From: an uncultured Eubacteriales bacterium
GTDB taxonomy: Bacteria; Bacillota; Clostridia; Oscillospirales; Oscillospiraceae
NCBI GenBank assembly: GCA_900319695.1
Contig: ONPN01000031.1
Location: 1-40,481 of the forward strand
DNA: 40,481 bases
Direction: 5' to 3'
Program-made: the position numbers and the translations under genes
The notes under the pieces: model-generated
Told to the model about the DNA's origin: nothing
Databases searched by the model: none
Seen by the model: only the letters and a program-made list of their open reading frames with translations
Part shown: positions 9,873 to 16,139 of the stretch, one piece after another
Numbering within the stretch: the first letter of the stretch is position 1
Layout: each line of letters opens with the position of its first letter

Positions 9873-11615
9873 TTACAGCTTCTGCGCCGCGCAGAGCTTC
9901 GCGTATACGCCGTCCTTTGCGATCAGCTCGTCGTGGGTGCCGTATTCGACGATGTGCTCGTTTTCCACCACGGCGATGTGGTCGGCGTTTCTCACGGTGG
10001 AGAGGCGGTGGGCAATGATGATGCCGGTGCGGCCCCGGCTCAGCTCGTCGAGACTTGCCTGGATGCGCTGTTCGGTCACGGTGTCGAGGGCGGAGGTGGC
10101 CTCGTCCAGAATCAGAACCCTCGGATTTTTGAGAAATACCCGCGCAATCGACAGGCGCTGCTTCTGCCCGCCGGAGAGCATGATGCCGCGCTCGCCGATG
10201 TAGGAGTCATAGCCGTCCGGCATCTGCATGATCTCGTCATGGATCTGGGCGCGGACAGCGGCCTCCACGATCTCCGCATCGGTGGCGTCCGGGCGGCCGT
10301 AGCGGATGTTCTCGCGGATGGTGCCCGCGAACATGAAGACCTCCTGCTGAATAACGCCGATCTGTCGGCGGAGACTCGCCTGCGTCACCGCACGCACGTC
10401 CTCGCCGTCCACCAGCACCGCGCCGCCGGTCACGTCGTAAAAGCGGGGGAGAAGACTCACCAGCGTGGTCTTTCCGCCGCCGGAGGGGCCGACCAGCGCA
10501 AGGGTCCGGCCCGGTTCGATGCGGAGATTGATGTGCTCCAAAACCGGTACGCCGTTTGAATAGGCAAAGCTCACGTCCCGGTACTCCACCTCGCCGCGCA
10601 CGTCTCCCAGTTCCTTCGCATCCGGCGCGTCGGTGACGGCGGGTTCGGTGTTCATCACTTCCAGAAAGCGTGTGAAGCCCGCCATGCCCTGCATGTAGAT
10701 TTCGCTGAACTGCGTCAGACGGCGGATGGGGTTGATGAAGACGGAGATGTACAGGGAGAAGGTGATGAGATCCACATAGTCCATGCTGCCGCCCATGATG
10801 AGCAGGCCGCCGACCGCGATGACCACCACCTGCGCGATGCCGGAGGAAAACTCCATGCCGCTCATAAACCCGGCCATGGCGCGGTAGTACTCGACCTTCG
10901 CGCCGCGGAAGAGAGCGTTGGCCGCGTCAAACTTCTCGCTCTCCTTCTCCTCGTTGGCAAAGGCCTTTGCCGTGCGGATGCCGGAGATCGACGACTCGAT
11001 GGCGGCGTAGATCTCGCCTGTCTTGCGCTTGACCTCAAGATTGGCTTTTTTCATGCGCACGCGCTGGGCGATGGTGAACCACAGCGTAAGGCCGAGCACC
11101 ACAGCCAGAGCTAGGGCGAGGCGCCAGTTGATCGTGAGCATCACGATCATGGAGCCGAAAAAGGTCAGACCGCAGATCAGCAGATTTTCAGGCCCATGGT
11201 GGGCAAGCTCCGTCACGTCGAAGAGGTCGGAGGTGATGTGGCTCATCAGGACGCCGGTGCGGTGGTGATCGTAATAAGAAAAGCTCAGGCTCTGCATGTG
11301 CTCGAAAATATCGCGGCGCATGTCGGATTCGGTCAGCACGCCGAGTCGGTGGCCGTAAACCGTGATCGCATACATGAGCGCCGCCTTGAGTACATAGGCC
11401 GCCGCCATCAAAGCCATGACCGAAAAGAACGCGCCGTAAAGCTTATCTGGCAGGAGGCGGTACATGGACAGGCGCGAGACGTAGGGGAAGATCAGGTCGA
11501 TCAAAGCGACCGCGACCGAGCAGCCCATATCCAGCGCAAAAAGCCCCCGATGCCGCGCGAGGTACTGCGCGAAAATCTTCAGGGGCGAGGCTTTGTAGTT
11601 GATGTTGTTTGTCAT
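9873..11615 (-). CDS. ABC exporter, fused membrane and ATPase domains (MsbA/LmrA type)
   Basis: 580 residues: an N-terminal six-helix ABC transmembrane domain (about 15-310) and a C-terminal ATPase. The ATPase has Walker A GPSGGGKTT (about 375), Q-loop VIQQEVF, signature LSGGQKQR (about 480), Walker B VLILDEATSALD and the H-loop IAHRLSTV. It is a half-transporter that should work as a homodimer, or with an unseen partner, exporting lipids, drugs or peptides; the substrate is not evident. ATG 11615 is preferred (GGGTGA upstream) over an in-frame TTG at 11627. It is flanked by two different palindromic repeats. Confidence 0.93.
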   Translation of the reverse strand: MTNNINYKASPLKIFAQYLARHRGLFALDMGCSVAVALIDLIFPYVSRLSMYRLLPDKLYGAFFSVMALMAAAYVLKAALMYAITVYGHRLGVLTESDMRRDIFEHMQSLSFSYYDHHRTGVLMSHITSDLFDVTELAHHGPENLLICGLTFFGSMIVMLTINWRLALALAVVLGLTLWFTIAQRVRMKKANLEVKRKTGEIYAAIESSISGIRTAKAFANEEKESEKFDAANALFRGAKVEYYRAMAGFMSGMEFSSGIAQVVVIAVGGLLIMGGSMDYVDLITFSLYISVFINPIRRLTQFSEIYMQGMAGFTRFLEVMNTEPAVTDAPDAKELGDVRGEVEYRDVSFAYSNGVPVLEHINLRIEPGRTLALVGPSGGGKTTLVSLLPRFYDVTGGAVLVDGEDVRAVTQASLRRQIGVIQQEVFMFAGTIRENIRYGRPDATDAEIVEAAVRAQIHDEIMQMPDGYDSYIGERGIMLSGGQKQRLSIARVFLKNPRVLILDEATSALDTVTEQRIQASLDELSRGRTGIIIAHRLSTVRNADHIAVVENEHIVEYGTHDELIAKDGVYAKLCAAQKL

Positions 11616-11637
11616 GGGATCACCCAAATCAAAATAT

Positions 11638-11737
11638 GGCTCCCCTGAAAGGGGAGCTGTCAGCCGTCAGGCTGACTGAGGGGTTAACCCCTCCGCCCCA
11701 GTGTGCGCACTGGGGCACCTCCCCTTTCAGGGGAGGC
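11638..11737. repeat. Intact 100-bp hairpin-rich element (third repeat family)
   Basis: The termini GGCTCCCCTGAAAGGGGAG and CTCCCCTTTCAGGGGAGGC are near-perfect inverted repeats, and each is internally palindromic. Inside are three more stems: GTCAGCC-GTCA-GGCTGAC, the 16-bp palindrome GAGGGGTTAACCCCTC, and GCCCCAGTG-TGCG-CACTGGGGC. The whole can fold as a multi-arm structure. It sits directly after the rnhA stop (11740). An interrupted copy flanks the DUF559 gene 460 bp away. Confidence 0.9.
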
Positions 11738-11739
11738 GT

Positions 11740-12177
11740 TTACGCAAATTTCTCCCGCTCTTCAACCGCCATCTTGTCGCAGCGGTTGTTGAACTCGTTG
11801 TCGGCGTGGCCCTTGACCCAGTGGTAGCGCATCTCATGCTGGCGCGTCAGGTCTAAAAGCGTTGCCCAGAGGTCGGGGTTGAGGGCGGGCTTTTTGTCGG
11901 ACTTGACCCAGCCCTTCTTGCGCCAGCCCCAGGCCCAGCCCTTTTCCAGCGCGTCGATGACGTACTTGGAATCGGAGTACAGCTCGACCGCACAGCTCTC
12001 CTTAAGGGCCAGAAGCGCCTGGATCACAGCGGTGAGCTCCATGCGGTTGTTGGTGGTCATGGCCTCCCCGCCGGAGAGGCATTTCTCGGCGCCGTTATAA
12101 CGCAGAATCGCCCCCCAGCCTCCCGGCCCGGGGTTTCCGCTGCAAGCGCCGTCGGTATAGATTTCGACTGTTTTCAT
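11740..12177 (-). CDS. rnhA: Ribonuclease HI
   Basis: 145 residues. It degrades the RNA strand of RNA:DNA hybrids. The catalytic set is complete: Asp9 (YTDGACSGN), Glu47 (NNRMELTA), Asp69 (YSDSK) and Asp134 (NNRCDKMA), with His124 in KGHADN. The basic handle region ([11 protein letters not shown]) is present, as in E. coli RNase HI. ATG 12177 has AGAGG 6 nt upstream, supporting an independent start. The reading frame is nevertheless open upstream without a stop through a repeat and into the DUF559 gene, so a 291-residue fusion is possible. Confidence 0.95.
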
Positions 12178-12615
12178 TCCAATCCTCTTCCTTATAGGCT
12201 CCCTTTCGAAAAGGGAGCTGTCAGCGAAGCTGACTGAGGAATCGAACCCAGTTCCTGCGCCATCCCCCGTGCGCTTCTGAAGCTCAAGATCAATATACTC
12301 ACAGACGCCGTAAAAGTTTTTGTTTACCTCATTATTTGGAATCCGTAAAACCTTTATTCCGTAAGTTGAGAGCACATGATCTCGCTCTCTGTCATATTTT
12401 GAACCTTCTGGTTCAAAATGCTGAGAGCCGTCCAGTTCGATAACGAGCTTCGCCGCTGCGCAGTAGAAATCGACGATATAATGATCAATCGGACGCTGAC
12501 GCATGATTCTCAGTGGGTAAGTCCGCAGAAACTCATACCAGAGCTTTCGCTCTTCTGGCGTCATATTCTTTCGCAGATCACGCGCATGTTTTATTTGTGT
12601 GCTGTCGTACTTCAT
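12178..12615 (-). CDS. DUF559 endonuclease-like protein, open in frame into rnhA
   Basis: From ATG 12615 the product has a complete DUF559 domain (residues about 5-118), related to the Vsr/PD-(D/E)XK nuclease fold. The motif RQRPID-YIVDFYC gives Asp49, and [10 protein letters not shown] gives Glu60 and Asp62, the expected metal-binding residues. The end given here is the last base before the rnhA ATG; there is no stop codon. Residues 116-146 ([18 protein letters not shown]...) are a translation of the repeat half at 12197-12250. No clear ribosome-binding site precedes 12615, because the sequence there belongs to the other repeat half. An alternative start near 12702 would lie wholly in the repeat. 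Function in the cell is unknown. Confidence 0.75.
12197..12254. repeat. Left half of an interrupted 100-bp element
   Basis: GGCTCCCTTTCGAAAAGGGAG, then GCTGTCAGCGAAGCTGAC and TGAGGA, match the left half of the intact copy at 11638 up to the centre. The match then stops at ATCGAACCC, where DUF559-associated sequence begins. Confidence 0.85.
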
Positions 12616-12635
12616 AATATGGTGCCGCTGCGCGG

Positions 12636-12700
12636 CGATTGAACCCGATCCCTCCGCCCCAGTGTGTGCACTGGGGCACCTCCCTTTTCCAAAGGGAGGC
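12636..12700. repeat. Right half of the interrupted 100-bp element
   Basis: Starting near GATTGAACCCGATCCCTCCG, this continues as GCCCCAGTGTGTGCACTGGGGC and ends in CTCCCTTTTCCAAAGGGAGGC, the right half of the family. Just inside it, 12621-12640 (GGTGCCGCTGCGCGGCGATT) resembles the core hairpin of the heptad-arm family. Confidence 0.85.
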
Positions 12701-12705
12701 ATAGG

Positions 12706-13506
12706 TCAATGGTAGTCCTCCGGGATCTCGAGCTCGCAGTAGCGCTCCTTCATAATCTTATACTCAGCCTTGTCGATGAGGCCGGCCTTGAGGTAGCTGT
12801 CAAGCTGCTGGATGTACTTTTCCTTGCCCGTCAGGTGCTGGCAGGTGATGGCCTCCTCGGTCTCGTCGCTGTGGCGGAGGATCGCGGCGGTCTGCTTTCC
12901 GGTCTTCGGGGTGGGGAAGGGCCGGTTGAGCTCGACCGTCTGTTTCTTCGCGCCGTTTTTGTTTGCCGTCATTTTGTTGGCCACGGTGGTGATAATCAGG
13001 ATGGCCGTGACGATTATCATGGTCGCGACCGCGGGGATGATTGCATCCTCGGCCCCGTTGTTGGCTATGGCAAAGGCCATGATGGCCGCAACAATGACCC
13101 ATATAATCGTCGCGGTACCCTTGGTGAGCGGCTGCTGGTTTTTCTTGTTGTTTCTCATCGGGACGCCTCCTTTTTCGGTGACGCTTGGCTGTGGCGGTAT
13201 ATTGGCTGGGGTTTTCTCTTTCTCACGCGCAATGCGGAAAGTCAGTGACGGGATGCCAAGCAGGCAGCTCAGGTTCAGCAAAGCCAGCCCCGCAAAAATG
13301 GCCAGCCCGATCACCTGCCCCCGGCTTCTCACCCAAAGGATTTGCAGGCCGTGCTCAAGGCCGCGCGTTTGCAAAAACGCCAGCGTATCCATCAGCAATT
13401 CCTTTGGCAACATATAGAGGAAAAACGCGGAGATCACCAGAAAAGCCCAGCAGAGGCTGCGCCGCTCGCGCAGCTTATCTGCTTTTGTCCGTGTTTTGGC
13501 GTTCAT
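12706..13506 (-). CDS. Membrane protein with C-terminal SHOCT-like motif; possible two-start gene
   Basis: 266 residues. Two hydrophobic helices lie in the N-terminal half (about 18-40 and 65-88) and two more around 132-175. A C-terminal SHOCT-like helix pair follows (EKYIQQLDSYLKAGLIDKAEY), a short oligomerisation-type motif found at protein ends. ATG 13506 is preceded by AGGGGG. A second in-frame ATG at 13158 (codon 117) is preceded by a strong AAAGGAGG, and the frame begins a new basic N-terminus there (MRNNKKNQQP). Either a 150-residue second product is made, or two neighbouring genes have fused by loss of a stop. No function can be assigned. Confidence 0.7.
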   Translation of the reverse strand: MNAKTRTKADKLRERRSLCWAFLVISAFFLYMLPKELLMDTLAFLQTRGLEHGLQILWVRSRGQVIGLAIFAGLALLNLSCLLGIPSLTFRIAREKEKTPANIPPQPSVTEKGGVPMRNNKKNQQPLTKGTATIIWVIVAAIMAFAIANNGAEDAIIPAVATMIIVTAILIITTVANKMTANKNGAKKQTVELNRPFPTPKTGKQTAAILRHSDETEEAITCQHLTGKEKYIQQLDSYLKAGLIDKAEYKIMKERYCELEIPEDYH

Positions 13507-13527
13507 GCGGCGTACCCCCTTGAATCA

Positions 13528-13622
13528 GTGTGGAGTTTGGAGTGTGAAGTGTGGAGTTGAGGTGTCCGCTTCGCGGACGAATTATACTCTTCGCCGAAGG
13601 CGCTCCATAACTCCACTCTCTA
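13528..13622. repeat. Heptad-arm palindromic element, copy 4
   Basis: The left arm is GTGTGGAGTTTGGAGTGTG. The core has GTCCGCTTCGCGGAC and CTTCGCCGAAGGCG hairpins, then CCATAACTCCACTC. It ends four bases before the gyrA stop codon at 13626. Confidence 0.85.
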
Positions 13623-13625
13623 AAC

Positions 13626-16139
13626 TTATTCTTCGCTCTCGTCCGTCTCGACCGGCTCGGCGTTCTCTTCCGCCGGATTCTTGTCCGTGCACTCGATGGA
13701 GATGACGCGGCTGCCCTCAATGAGGCGCATGAGGCGCACGCCCTGAGTGGCGCGGGAAAGAAGGGAAATGTGATCCACCGCCATGCGGATGATGGTGCCG
13801 TCGTCCGTGATGACGAGCAGATCCTCATCCCCGGTGACGAGCTTCACGTCCGCAATGAGGCCGGTCTTGTCGGTGCAGTTGTAGTTTTTGATACCGAGGC
13901 CGCCGCGGCCGTGGACTGCGTACTCGCTGAGATCGGTGCGCTTGCCGTAGCCTTTTTCGGTGACGGTCAGCACCTCGCCGCCCTGCTCCGAAGAGCCGGC
14001 GCCGATGACGAAGTCGCCGTCGCGGAGTCTGATGCCGCGCACGCCGACGGCCACACGTCCCATCGCGCGCACGTCGGATTCCTCAAAGCAGACGGCCATG
14101 CCGTTCTTGGTGGCGATGAAGATATTCTCATGTCCGTTGGTGGAGAGGACGGAAATCAGCTCGTCCCCCTCGTCGAGGGTGATGGCGCGGATGCCGTTGG
14201 AGCGGATGTTTCTGAGGGCGGTCTGTTCGATGCGCTTGACCGTGCCGTTGCGTGTAACGAAGAAGAGATAGCTCTCCTCCTCCATGCCGCGGCCGCGGAT
14301 CATGGCGCTGACCTTCTCCGGATTCTCGCCGTTCTCCACGGGGATGATGTTCACGATATTGGTGCCCTTGGCGCTGCGTCCCGCCTCGGGGATGTGGTAG
14401 CCCTTCTTGATGAAGGCACGGCCCTTGGAGGTGAAGAAGAGGATATAGTCATGGGTTGAGGCCGTGAAGACCGTCTCCACATAGTCCTCCTCCTTGGTGG
14501 CCATGGCGCGGATGCCCTTGCCGCCGCGGCCCTGGGCGCGGTACTCCGAGACCGGGGTGCGCTTGATGTAGCCGCCGTGGGTCAGGGTAAAGACGCACTC
14601 CTCTTTCTCGATGAGATCCTCAATGTCGATCTCATCGGCCACGTCCTGAATCTCGGTGAGGCGTTCGTCGCCGTACTTGTCGCGCAGGGCGATGAGCTCG
14701 TCCTTCAGCACGGCCTTGACCTTTTCGGGGTCGGCCAGCAGCTCCTGGAAGTAGGCGATGCGCTCCTCCAGCTCCTTGTATTCGTTCTCCAGCTTCTCGC
14801 GGTTGAGACCCTGCAGGGCGATCAGGCGCATGTCGCAGATGGCCTGGGCCTGCACGTCGTCAAGGCCGAAGCGCTGCATGAGGCGCTGCTTGGCGTCGTC
14901 GTAGGAGGTGCGGATGATGTGAATGACCTCGTCGATGTTGTCCTGGGCGATGAGCAGGCCCTCCAGCAGATGGGCGCGCTCCTGAGCCTTGCGGAGGTCG
15001 AACTTCGTCCGGCGGACGATGATCTCCTCCTGGAACGTGAGGTATTCGTCCAGGATGTGGCGCAGGGAGAGGATCTTCGGCTGGCTCTGGTTGTTGACGA
15101 GGGCCAGCATGTTGATTGAAAAGCTGGTCTGCATGGCGGTCTGGGCGAAGAGGCGGTTGAGCACCACCTGGGGATTGGCGTCCCGTTTCAGCTCGATGAC
15201 CATGCGCATGCCGTTGCGGTCGGTCTCGTCGCGCAGGTCGGAGATACCCTCGAGCCGCTTGTCGTGGACCTGGTCGGCAATGTTCTTGATGAGTTGGCGC
15301 TTGTTGACCTGGTAGGGCAGCTCCGTGACAATGATGCGGGTGCGGTTCTGGCCGAACTCCTCAAACTCGGCGCGGGCGCGGACGATGATCTTGCCGCGGC
15401 CGGTGAGGTACGCCTGGCGGATGCCGCTGCGGCCCATGATGATGCCCCTTGTGGGGAAGTCCGGGCCGGTGATGTGCTGCATCAGATCGGCGAGCGTCGC
15501 GTCGGGATTATCCAGCACGCAGACACAGGCGTTGATGACCTCGGTGAGGTTGTGGGGCGGGATGTTCGTCGCCATGCCGACCGCAATGCCCGAGGAGCCG
15601 TTGACCAGCAGGTTCGGGAACTTGGAGGGAAGGACGCGGGGCTCCTTGCGGGTCTCGTCAAAGTTGGGGTCCCAGTCGACGGTCTCCTTGTCGATGTCGC
15701 GCAGCATCTCGTTGGAGATTTTTGACAGTCTCGCCTCGGTGTAGCGGTAGGCGGCCGGGGGATCGCCGTCCACGGAGCCGAAGTTGCCGTGGCCGTCGAT
15801 GAGCATCATGCGCATCGAAAAGCTCTGCGCCAGTCTCACCATCGCGTCGTAGACGGAGGCGTCGCCGTGGGGATGGTAGCGGCCCAGCACGTCGCCCACG
15901 CAGGTCGCGGACTTTTTAAACGGCTTGTCGGCGGTCAGGCCGTCCTCATAGAGCGTATAGAGAATACGCCGGTGCACGGGCTTGAGGCCGTCGCGCACGT
16001 CCGGCAGGGCTCTGCCGACAATGACCGACATGGCGTAGTCGATATAGCTGGTCTGCATTTCGCCCACCAGCTCGGATTCGGTAATGGCCTGATTTGGGAA
16101 CGCAATGTCCTCAGGCTTGTAGTCTCTTTTATGTGCCAA
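13626..16139 (-). CDS. gyrA: DNA gyrase subunit A
   Basis: 837 residues. The breakage-reunion domain contains the catalytic tyrosine Tyr133 (YRYTEARL) and the [10 protein letters not shown] quinolone-binding stretch (89-98). The C-terminal beta-pinwheel has a GyrA-box-like QGRGGKG. The start is TTG 16139, supported by GGGAGG 9 nt upstream. At the residue equivalent to E. coli Ser83 this protein has Ala94. It is transcribed with gyrB, though separated from it by a 230-bp gap filled by a repeat. It introduces negative supercoils as an A2B2 tetramer. Confidence 0.98.

What the first reader, a model, noticed from the sequence alone, without database searches (positions are those of the whole stretch)
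11638..12700. DUF559 nuclease-like gene lies inside an interrupted copy of a palindromic element, with an intact copy next to it
An uninterrupted 100-bp hairpin-rich element (11638-11737) lies on one side of rnhA. On the other side the same element is split: its left half is at 12197-12254 and its right half at 12636-12700. Between the halves is a DUF559 gene with intact D49, E60 and D62. The break is near the element's central GAGGGGTTAACCCCTC palindrome, where the split halves read ATCGAACCC and GATTGAACCC instead. This suggests the nuclease gene travels with, or inserts into, this repeat family, as homing endonucleases or transposon-encoded nucleases do. The split and the domain are seen in the sequence; mobility is inference.
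Basis: partly seen in the sequence, partly recalled or inferred. Interest (0 to 1): 0.75.

Follow-up and report, generated by a model that had tools for sequence, protein, structure and literature searches.

The report
Nuclease gene inside paired hairpin repeats
In many gut bacteria a small gene for a predicted DNA-cutting enzyme sits between two mirror-image halves of a hairpin-forming DNA repeat, and gene and repeats appear to move around genomes together, which looks like a new sort of simple mobile element.

Summary
A covariance model of the half-element (tag + two hairpins) finds four strong copies in the window: a solo inward-facing pair (11638-11738) and two copies bracketing the DUF559 gene (12198-12242, 12648-12699). 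The two copies are of different subfamilies.

In the genus and order relatives 62/90 DUF559 loci have matching inverted flanks against 31/3000 control placements. Of 74 named loci, mostly Clostridia, 41 have inward halves on both sides and 2 have none nearby. In 197 genomes of the order, 49/51 with a DUF559 match of 70 bits or more carry halves, against 38/146 others. Related copies with unrelated flanks share sequence starting at the outer repeat edge. Left and right tags agree in 63 of 77 typed genes, nuclease type tracks tag type, and the gene starts a median 7 nt after the tag. Orthologous gaps exist empty, solo or filled. No target duplication was found.

Best reading: a REPtron-like mobile unit whose Vsr/EDxHD-type nuclease acts on its own folded ends. 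Co-travel is well supported; that the nuclease drives it is inferred. Solo spacers do not look DUF559-derived. Ten literature searches found no report of the link.

The parts
11638..11738 (.). Solo element: two inward-facing half-elements (11638-11684 on -, 11687-11738 on +), tag GAGGGGT subfamily, contiguous centre
   Evidence: R1 matches 49.9 and 53.7 bits; fold z -10.4; present in sister genome G091
12198..12242 (-). Half-element downstream of DUF559 (tag GAGGAAT, hairpin II TCAGC-GAA-GCTGA, hairpin I CTCCCTTT..AAAGGGAG)
   Evidence: R1 51.4 bits; fold z -5.0
12271..12615 (-). DUF559 (PF04480) Vsr/EDxHD-like PD-(D/E)XK nuclease gene; invariant D49, E60, D62, H66, D75; no stop before rnhA
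   Evidence: PDB relatives 3hrl (E 3e-21) and 3r3p 'Mobile intron protein' (E 0.0015)
12648..12699 (+). Half-element upstream of DUF559 (tag ATCCCTC; hairpin II CCCCAGTG-TGTG-CACTGGGG; hairpin I CCTCCCTTTT..AAAGGGAGG)
   Evidence: R1 51.3 bits (a training sequence of R1); fold z -6.5
11740..12177 (-). rnhA (RNase HI), in frame with DUF559 through the repeat half (320-aa open frame)
   Evidence: neighbour used for the empty/solo/filled comparison

Best explanation
The DUF559 gene and its two half-elements form one small mobile unit, built and probably working like a REP/REPIN-RAYT system (REPtron) but with an unrelated enzyme. Each half is a 7-8 nt tag, a hairpin of free sequence (II) and a family-specific hairpin (I); the tag is a shifted copy of the hairpin I arm. 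The gene lies between two inward-facing tags. Solo pairs with short unrelated spacers are non-autonomous relatives. The nuclease, of the Vsr/EDxHD type, most likely recognises tag plus hairpin I in folded or cruciform DNA and nicks or cuts there, so that unit or solo pair is copied into new intergenic sites, often A/T-flanked, without target duplication. SHOWN: architecture, register, enrichment, left/right and nuclease/tag matching, shared sequence starting at the outer repeat edge, presence/absence at orthologous sites. INFERRED: that the nuclease cuts its own ends and drives copying.
For: Flanks: 62 of 90 loci (genus plus some order relatives) with inverted flank match score >=14 vs 31 of 3000 control placements; >=20: 31 of 90 vs 7 of 3000; flanks of two different loci paired at random reach 20 in 9%. 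49 of 74 named loci vs 8 of 1240. R1: inward halves on both sides in 41 of 74, none nearby in 2 of 74, density 4.2/kb next to the gene vs 0.18/kb elsewhere. Not selected on flanks: 49 of 51 genomes of the order with DUF559 >=70 bits carry halves vs 38 of 146 others (Fisher p 7e-20); 22 of the 150 listed half-elements lie within 200 bp of one of 80 DUF559 genes, expected 0.02. Unit: related copies with unrelated flanks align from the outer edge of the left half (AAAAGCCTCCC or AAAAGCCTTCC) and in families B and E to the outer edge of the right half. Tags agree left/right in 63 of 77 genes typed on both sides, of 185 with flanks (shuffle mean 15.7, max 32 of 2000); nearest protein relative has the same tag in 53 of 63 (mean 12.3). 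Same-genome copies with different tags are 54% identical (8 pairs), same-tag copies in different genomes 66% (378 pairs), different tag and genome 53% (1565). Register: start codon a median 7 nt after the tag, n=121 of 179. Hairpin II covaries (pair 13-30 changed on both sides in 17 of 29). Tag shares 5 or more nt with its own hairpin I arm in 84% vs 38% across families (101 halves). Sites: miaB-mutS gap holds DUF559 in 13 of 94 genomes, 6 changes on the tree, 5 forced by supported branches.
Against: No cleavage, excision or movement was seen. 28 of 90 loci fall below the flank threshold, among them the second DUF559 gene of the window's own genome (the threshold of 14 was read off the control distribution). 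31 of 74 named loci lack a correctly oriented half on one or both sides although one is near. Solo spacers do not resemble DUF559 ends (0 of 29), so solos are not simple deletion derivatives. 11 of 54 non-carrier genomes still hold 20 or more halves. The genus co-occurrence (p 4e-9 uncorrected) is not significant on independent pairs (median p 0.125). In family A the shared sequence runs about 130 nt beyond the right half and in family D beyond the left half; one family B copy (L115_29) has a different right half. Several mutS-site genes show no right half, by eye. A PD-(D/E)XK nuclease alone is not known to join DNA (recalled).
Confidence: 0.6

Rival explanations
1. Homing: the solo pair is the target. 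DUF559 cuts the centre of an intact pair and the break is repaired from a filled copy, with the half-elements as homology arms, so the gene spreads through an existing population of repeats.
For: Solved relatives include, weakly, a mobile intron protein (3r3p, E 0.0015); EDxHD homing enzymes are described in PMC3943268 (passages), and PMC9403480 (passages) counts a cyanobacterial DUF559 gene among them. The gene sits between inward tags. Solo and filled states occur at the same orthologous gaps, and solo pairs also lie beside the gene in some filled gaps.
Against: Solo centres are variable (0-60 nt, unrelated sequence), not a fixed target. Filled copies in unrelated flanks share hairpin I and tag with each other. 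The mutS gaps that hold only a solo element (G080, G072, G108) lie in a clade with no filled gap.
Confidence: 0.17
2. Passenger: the half-elements are moved by another enzyme (for example an IS200/RAYT-type Y1 transposase) and DUF559 is cargo or a regulator.
For: PF01797 occurs in 56 of 102 genus genomes; halves persist in non-carriers; no target duplication, as in IS200-type elements (the property of IS200 is recalled).
Against: No PF01797 match in the window's genome (79% complete), where all 59 half-element candidates scored are matches. In held loci all 57 inward pairs with a 251-600 bp gap hold DUF559, though these loci were mostly chosen for DUF559. Nuclease type tracks tag type.
Confidence: 0.13
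3. Host repair gene: DUF559 is a Vsr-like repair nuclease and repeats merely accumulate around it.
For: Caulobacter VsrA carries a DUF559 domain and a repair role is proposed (PMC12907096, passages). DUF559 lies next to mutS in 13 of 94 genus genomes.
Against: Random gene-sized placements rarely show paired inverted flanks (31 of 3000). Patchy, multi-copy distribution: 48 of 102 genomes, one of them (G079) only by a long protein, and up to five strong matches per genome. Shared sequence starts at the repeat edge in unrelated flanks.
Confidence: 0.07

Closest known systems
REP/REPIN-RAYT (REPtron) systems (PMC3733652, passages; PMC8266576, abstract and outline)
   Same: High-copy intergenic hairpins, often as inverted pairs; enzyme gene flanked by inverted copies; enzyme and repeat sequence co-segregate; short tag next to the hairpin
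   Different: Enzyme is a Vsr/EDxHD-like PD-(D/E)XK nuclease, not a HUH Y1 transposase; tags seen are GAGGGAT, GAGGGGT, GATGAGG, GGGGGAT, GAGGGAGT or GAGAGGG, not GTAG or CGTC; each half has two hairpins
EDxHD homing endonucleases such as I-Bth0305I (PMC3943268, PMC9403480, passages; that PDB 3r3p is this enzyme is recalled)
   Same: Distant sequence relative of the catalytic domain; small stand-alone nuclease linked to its own spread
   Different: Not in an intron or intein; flanked by its own hairpin repeats; no second domain found in Pfam; solo spacers are not a fixed target
Vsr and DUF559 proteins such as Caulobacter VsrA (PMC12907096, passages) and E. coli YcjD (PMC1189080, PMC12817139, passages)
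   Same: Same domain family
   Different: Those are discussed as repair or hypothetical genes; no link to repeats in the passages read
MITEs and DDE insertion sequences (recalled)
   Same: Inverted terminal repeats; short copies without the gene outnumber gene-bearing ones
   Different: No target-site duplication found; no DDE transposase in the unit; solo centres not derived from the gene

Membership tests
REPtron (REP + RAYT) | HUH Y1 (PF01797) transposase gene between the repeats | tested here: not met
   The gene is PF04480; no PF01797 match in the window's genome
REPtron (REP + RAYT) | Inverted palindromic repeats flank the gene | tested here: met
REPtron (REP + RAYT) | GTAG (or CGTC) tag beside the hairpin | tested here: not met
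   Tag families were set by eye from printed flanks and used; none is GTAG or CGTC; 80 of 185 left and 79 of 185 right flanks stayed untyped
REPtron (REP + RAYT) | Many solo repeats, often as inverted pairs with a variable spacer | tested here: met
REPtron (REP + RAYT) | Enzyme cuts single-stranded folded repeat | not testable with these tools
   Biochemistry needed
EDxHD homing endonuclease | Catalytic domain of the family | tested here: inconclusive
   3r3p E 0.0015 with profile A1, not reported at E <= 0.01 with profile A3
EDxHD homing endonuclease | Lies in a self-splicing intron or intein | tested here: not met
   Intergenic; no Rfam match in 11500-13700
EDxHD homing endonuclease | Empty allele is the target | tested here: inconclusive
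   Solo and empty alleles exist but solo centres vary
DDE MITE / IS | Target-site duplication | tested here: not met
   Scan of 83 elements, lengths 2-9, offsets 0-8, no consistent repeat
Vsr (very short patch repair) | Linked cytosine methyltransferase gene | not tested
   Not searched

The most novel reading that the evidence does not exclude
A single-gene class of mobile element, found in several bacterial phyla, in which a Vsr/EDxHD-like nuclease with no transposase mobilises hairpin repeats that it recognises by a tag plus hairpin. DUF559 would be the missing partner enzyme of many orphan palindromic repeats: the Deinococcus copies flanked by CACCCCTCTCCC-type hairpins and similar repeats beside E. 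coli ycjD hint at this.
Probability: 0.35. Interest if true: 0.92.

Novelty: new variant of a known kind. Interest (0 to 1): 0.8.

Why it matters
REP-like palindromes are common repeats in bacteria, and how they spread is poorly understood (PMC8266576, abstract); PMC3733652 (passages) notes that CGTC repeats lack a known transposase. This finding ties one large family of such repeats to a protein family that Pfam still lists as of unknown function (DUF559) by position, sequence matching and co-occurrence. It gives a small, testable pair (a 115-aa protein and a 45-55 nt hairpin) and a possible function for a widespread protein family.

Tried and rejected
Internal-deletion origin of solo copies: tested and not supported (0 of 29 spacers exceed 40 shuffles each). 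Target-site duplication: none. Phylogeny-aware co-occurrence in the genus: same direction but not significant. All DUF559 alike: rejected; the eleven divergent 48-63-bit genes checked from the phylum search (L274-L281, L284, L286, L288) scored 7.5-10.5, and of three ~100-bit loci from that search L273 scored 25.5 (171-bp right flank), L271 8.0 and L272 (47-bp left flank) 6.0. Two-sided flanking outside Clostridia: of eight phage or plasmid records fetched three passed score 14 (L300 48.5, L301 20.5, L305 28.0); Azospirillum, Sinorhizobium, Picosynechococcus, E. coli and phage scaffold L304 scored 9.0-12.5, although hairpins lie beside several. G091, the closest relative by rnhA, has other repeats in the rnhA gap, so there is no clean empty allele for the window copy itself. 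Exact empty sites in Deinococcus were too diverged to read the insertion point. Known RNA family: none. Defence system: only weak PADLOC matches. In one search the PDB matches other than 3hrl and 3r3p (E 0.0029 and above, among them toxin B subunits at E > 0.4) were taken as chance and not pursued. Selection to bear in mind: R1 was built from 29 halves picked by hand from 115 distinct two-hairpin halves (of 190 candidates), one from the window and others from loci counted; genome searches scored about 59 or 30 candidates per genome and listed only the best matches, so counts are lower bounds. Rows dropped for short flanks: 9 of 99 segments, 6 of 80 named loci. Tallies of rnhA-gap states were made by eye, on about 62 of the 96 genomes with rnhA.

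Full report
OBSERVATION. A covariance model of one half-element (R1) has four strong matches in 40 kb: 11638-11684 (-) and 11687-11738 (+), a solo inward-facing pair, and 12198-12242 (-) and 12648-12699 (+), one on each side of a DUF559 gene; the last is one of R1's 29 training sequences. Folding as DNA is far better than shuffles (z -10.4, -5.0, -6.5). The DUF559 domain scores E 5e-29 with D49, E60, D62, H66 and D75 invariant in a 29-row alignment. Its frame runs through the repeat into rnhA, giving one 320-aa open frame; nine rnhA rows show open frames of 294-415 aa (a tenth long frame, in G073, is a 45%-identical paralogue). The two copies are different subfamilies (GAGGGGT solo, GAGGGAT filled), so the solo copy is probably not the unsplit twin of the other. 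The genome's second DUF559 gene (L032) lacks matched flanks (score 7.0).

GRAMMAR OF THE ELEMENT. Each half reads, from the gene outwards: tag (7-8 nt), hairpin II (free sequence, about 4-10 bp), hairpin I (about 8 bp, family-specific), then C and a T-rich stretch. 115 distinct halves with two hairpins were extracted from 190 candidates. In 29 of these, chosen by hand, hairpin II is kept by covariation: pair 13-30 is changed on both sides in 17, unchanged in 11 and broken in 1. The tag is a shifted copy of the hairpin I arm: 5 or more nt shared in 84% of 101 halves, 38% across families, 28% with shuffled tags. The start codon follows the tag by a median 7 nt (121 of 179 genes measurable), so the GGAGG of many left tags is placed to serve as the gene's ribosome-binding site (inference).

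ENRICHMENT. In the genus PF04480 matches 48 of 102 genomes, one only by a long protein, with up to five strong matches per genome. From these and some order relatives, 90 of 99 unique DUF559 segments had enough flank; 62 of 90 show an inverted match between left and right flank at score >=14, against 31 of 3000 same-sized placements elsewhere in the fetched loci, and 31 of 90 against 7 of 3000 at >=20. In 74 of 80 named loci from a separate collection, mostly Clostridia, it is 49 of 74 against 8 of 1240. With R1, 41 of 74 have inward halves on both sides, 31 more have some half nearby and 2 have none; density is 4.2 per kb beside the gene and 0.18 per kb elsewhere. The cleanest test used 197 genomes of the order, drawn without regard to flanks: 49 of 51 genomes with a DUF559 of 70 bits or more carry R1 matches, against 38 of 146 others (Fisher p 7e-20) and 2 of 9 genomes whose only DUF559 match is weaker than 70 bits; 22 of the 150 listed R1 matches lie within 200 bp of one of the 80 DUF559 genes, where 0.02 are expected. 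In the genus, carriers have a median 38.5 matching halves against 1 in non-carriers (p 4e-9, uncorrected), but on phylogenetically independent pairs this is not significant (median p 0.125).

ONE UNIT. All-against-all comparison found close DUF559 relatives with unrelated outer flanks (the pairs L035/L036 and L198/L217 share one flank and are orthologues). Printed side by side, copies of families A, B and E share sequence from the outer edge of the left half (AAAAGCCTCCC or AAAAGCCTTCC); two rows of family A lack that half. Families B and E also share it to the outer edge of the right half, except that L115_29 has a different right half; family A continues about 130 nt further on the right, and family D beyond the left half. 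Hairpin II differs even between close copies while gene, tag and hairpin I stay. Left and right tags are of the same family in 63 of the 77 genes that could be typed on both sides, of 185 with flanks (shuffle mean 15.7, max 32 of 2000), and the nearest relative by protein has the same tag in 53 of 63, still 45 of 63 when only relatives under 75% identity count. Copies in one genome with different tags are 54% identical (8 pairs), copies with the same tag in different genomes 66% (378 pairs). So nuclease type follows repeat type rather than host.

SITES. In the rnhA gap (about 62 of 96 genomes fetched, states by eye, DUF559 rows) the DUF559 unit is present in 11 genomes and solo elements in about five; others are empty, hold remnants or hold other repeat families. 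In the miaB-mutS gap, 13 of 94 genomes hold DUF559, one of them frameshifted (G101) and one at a contig end (G063), and 47 of the 86 gaps measured are 70 bp or shorter and lack it; the tree needs six changes, five forced by well-supported branches. Solo copies in that gap in G080, G072 and G108 are of three different families, by eye. In the Deinococcus hpa operon the gene sits in different gaps in different species and is absent from the stretches fetched of D. deserti, D. ficus and D. radiodurans; D. proteolyticus has 56-bp inverted flanks with three mismatches. The closest relative of the window's genome lacks the unit at this site and carries other repeats there.

WHAT SOLO COPIES ARE. Inward pairs in the held loci, of the tag families searched, fall into two main size classes: 38 with gaps up to 60 bp and 57 with 251-600 bp, all 57 holding DUF559; 8 lie between and 3 are longer. 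Most held loci were chosen for DUF559, so the 57 of 57 says what the cargo is, not how common it is. Solo spacers of 12-60 nt show no likeness to DUF559 ends (0 of 29). That argues against plain deletion derivatives and against a fixed homing target, and resembles REPINs, where two inverted repeats hold a variable spacer (that property recalled). No target-site duplication was found in 83 elements; the outer edges are A-rich on the left and T-rich on the right.

THE ENZYME. Profile searches link it to 3hrl (endonuclease-like protein, E 3e-21) and weakly to 3r3p (mobile intron protein, E 0.0015); the second did not reach E 0.01 with the other profile. PMC3943268 (passages) describes the EDxHD homing family, and PMC9403480 (passages) places a cyanobacterial DUF559 gene in it, so a link of DUF559 to homing enzymes is in print. 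PMC1189080 (passages) reports that the YcjD profile detects Vsr, and PMC12907096 (passages) names a DUF559 protein VsrA. The predicted structure was not ready.

MECHANISM. Most likely (0.6) this is a REPtron-like unit: the nuclease recognises tag plus hairpin I in folded DNA and cuts there, and repair or replication copies unit or solo pair into new intergenic sites. Homing into solo pairs (0.17), transport by another enzyme (0.13) and repeats piling up around a repair gene (0.07) remain. Architecture, matching and presence/absence are shown; cutting and movement are inferred.

NOVELTY. Ten literature searches over open-access PubMed Central listed no paper that, by title, abstract start or the passages read, links DUF559 to palindromic repeats. 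Of the 14 papers that mention DUF559 I read passages of three and only the listing of the rest. Subscription papers and preprints were not searched.

CAVEATS. Most genomes are metagenome bins; the Anaerolineaceae locus L216 may be a binning error, since its repeats are of the clostridial type. R1 was trained partly on loci later counted. Capped scoring makes repeat counts lower bounds.

Noticed in passing
window 13532-13625; L383, L376, L404, L361, L387 (miaB-mutS gaps): A second, parallel arrangement: a gene of the 23S_rRNA_IVP type (PF05635, shown for L383 and L404) flanked by a different inverted repeat family (AATTCGGAATTCGG.. or GTGTGGAGTG..); a solo copy of such a repeat at window 13532-13625 is absent from sister genome G091.
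   Followed up: partly
miaB-mutS gap in 13 genus genomes (e.g. L126, L135, L147, L152): DUF559 lies upstream of and co-directional with mutS, mostly with an intact frame, and in several the repeat half on the mutS side is not seen, which may mean co-option beside a mismatch-repair gene.
   Followed up: partly
window 11740-12702 and rnhA loci: DUF559 is open in frame into rnhA; nine rnhA rows have open frames of 294-415 aa, so a fused protein is possible.
   Followed up: no
L300, L301, L308, L312 (Deinococcus plasmids): DUF559 inserted antisense in different gaps of the hpa operon with halves in reverse order (hairpin I inside); G435:C14:123287 in the order search shows a similarly reversed orientation.
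   Followed up: partly
L307 and the E. coli genome collection: ycjD (DUF559) lies between sapF and fabI; 3361 of 5426 E. coli genomes hold a place covering at least 80% of that query. A CCCTCACCCCAACCCTCTCCC hairpin lies on one side; PMC12817139 (passages) reports eefRABCD in its place in other lineages.
   Followed up: no
L198, L200, L203, L204, L217, L232 (family A): The shared unit extends about 130 nt beyond the right half, with a terminator-like hairpin and a conserved tail around CTGTCCTTTAGAGT; a larger composite element may exist.
   Followed up: no
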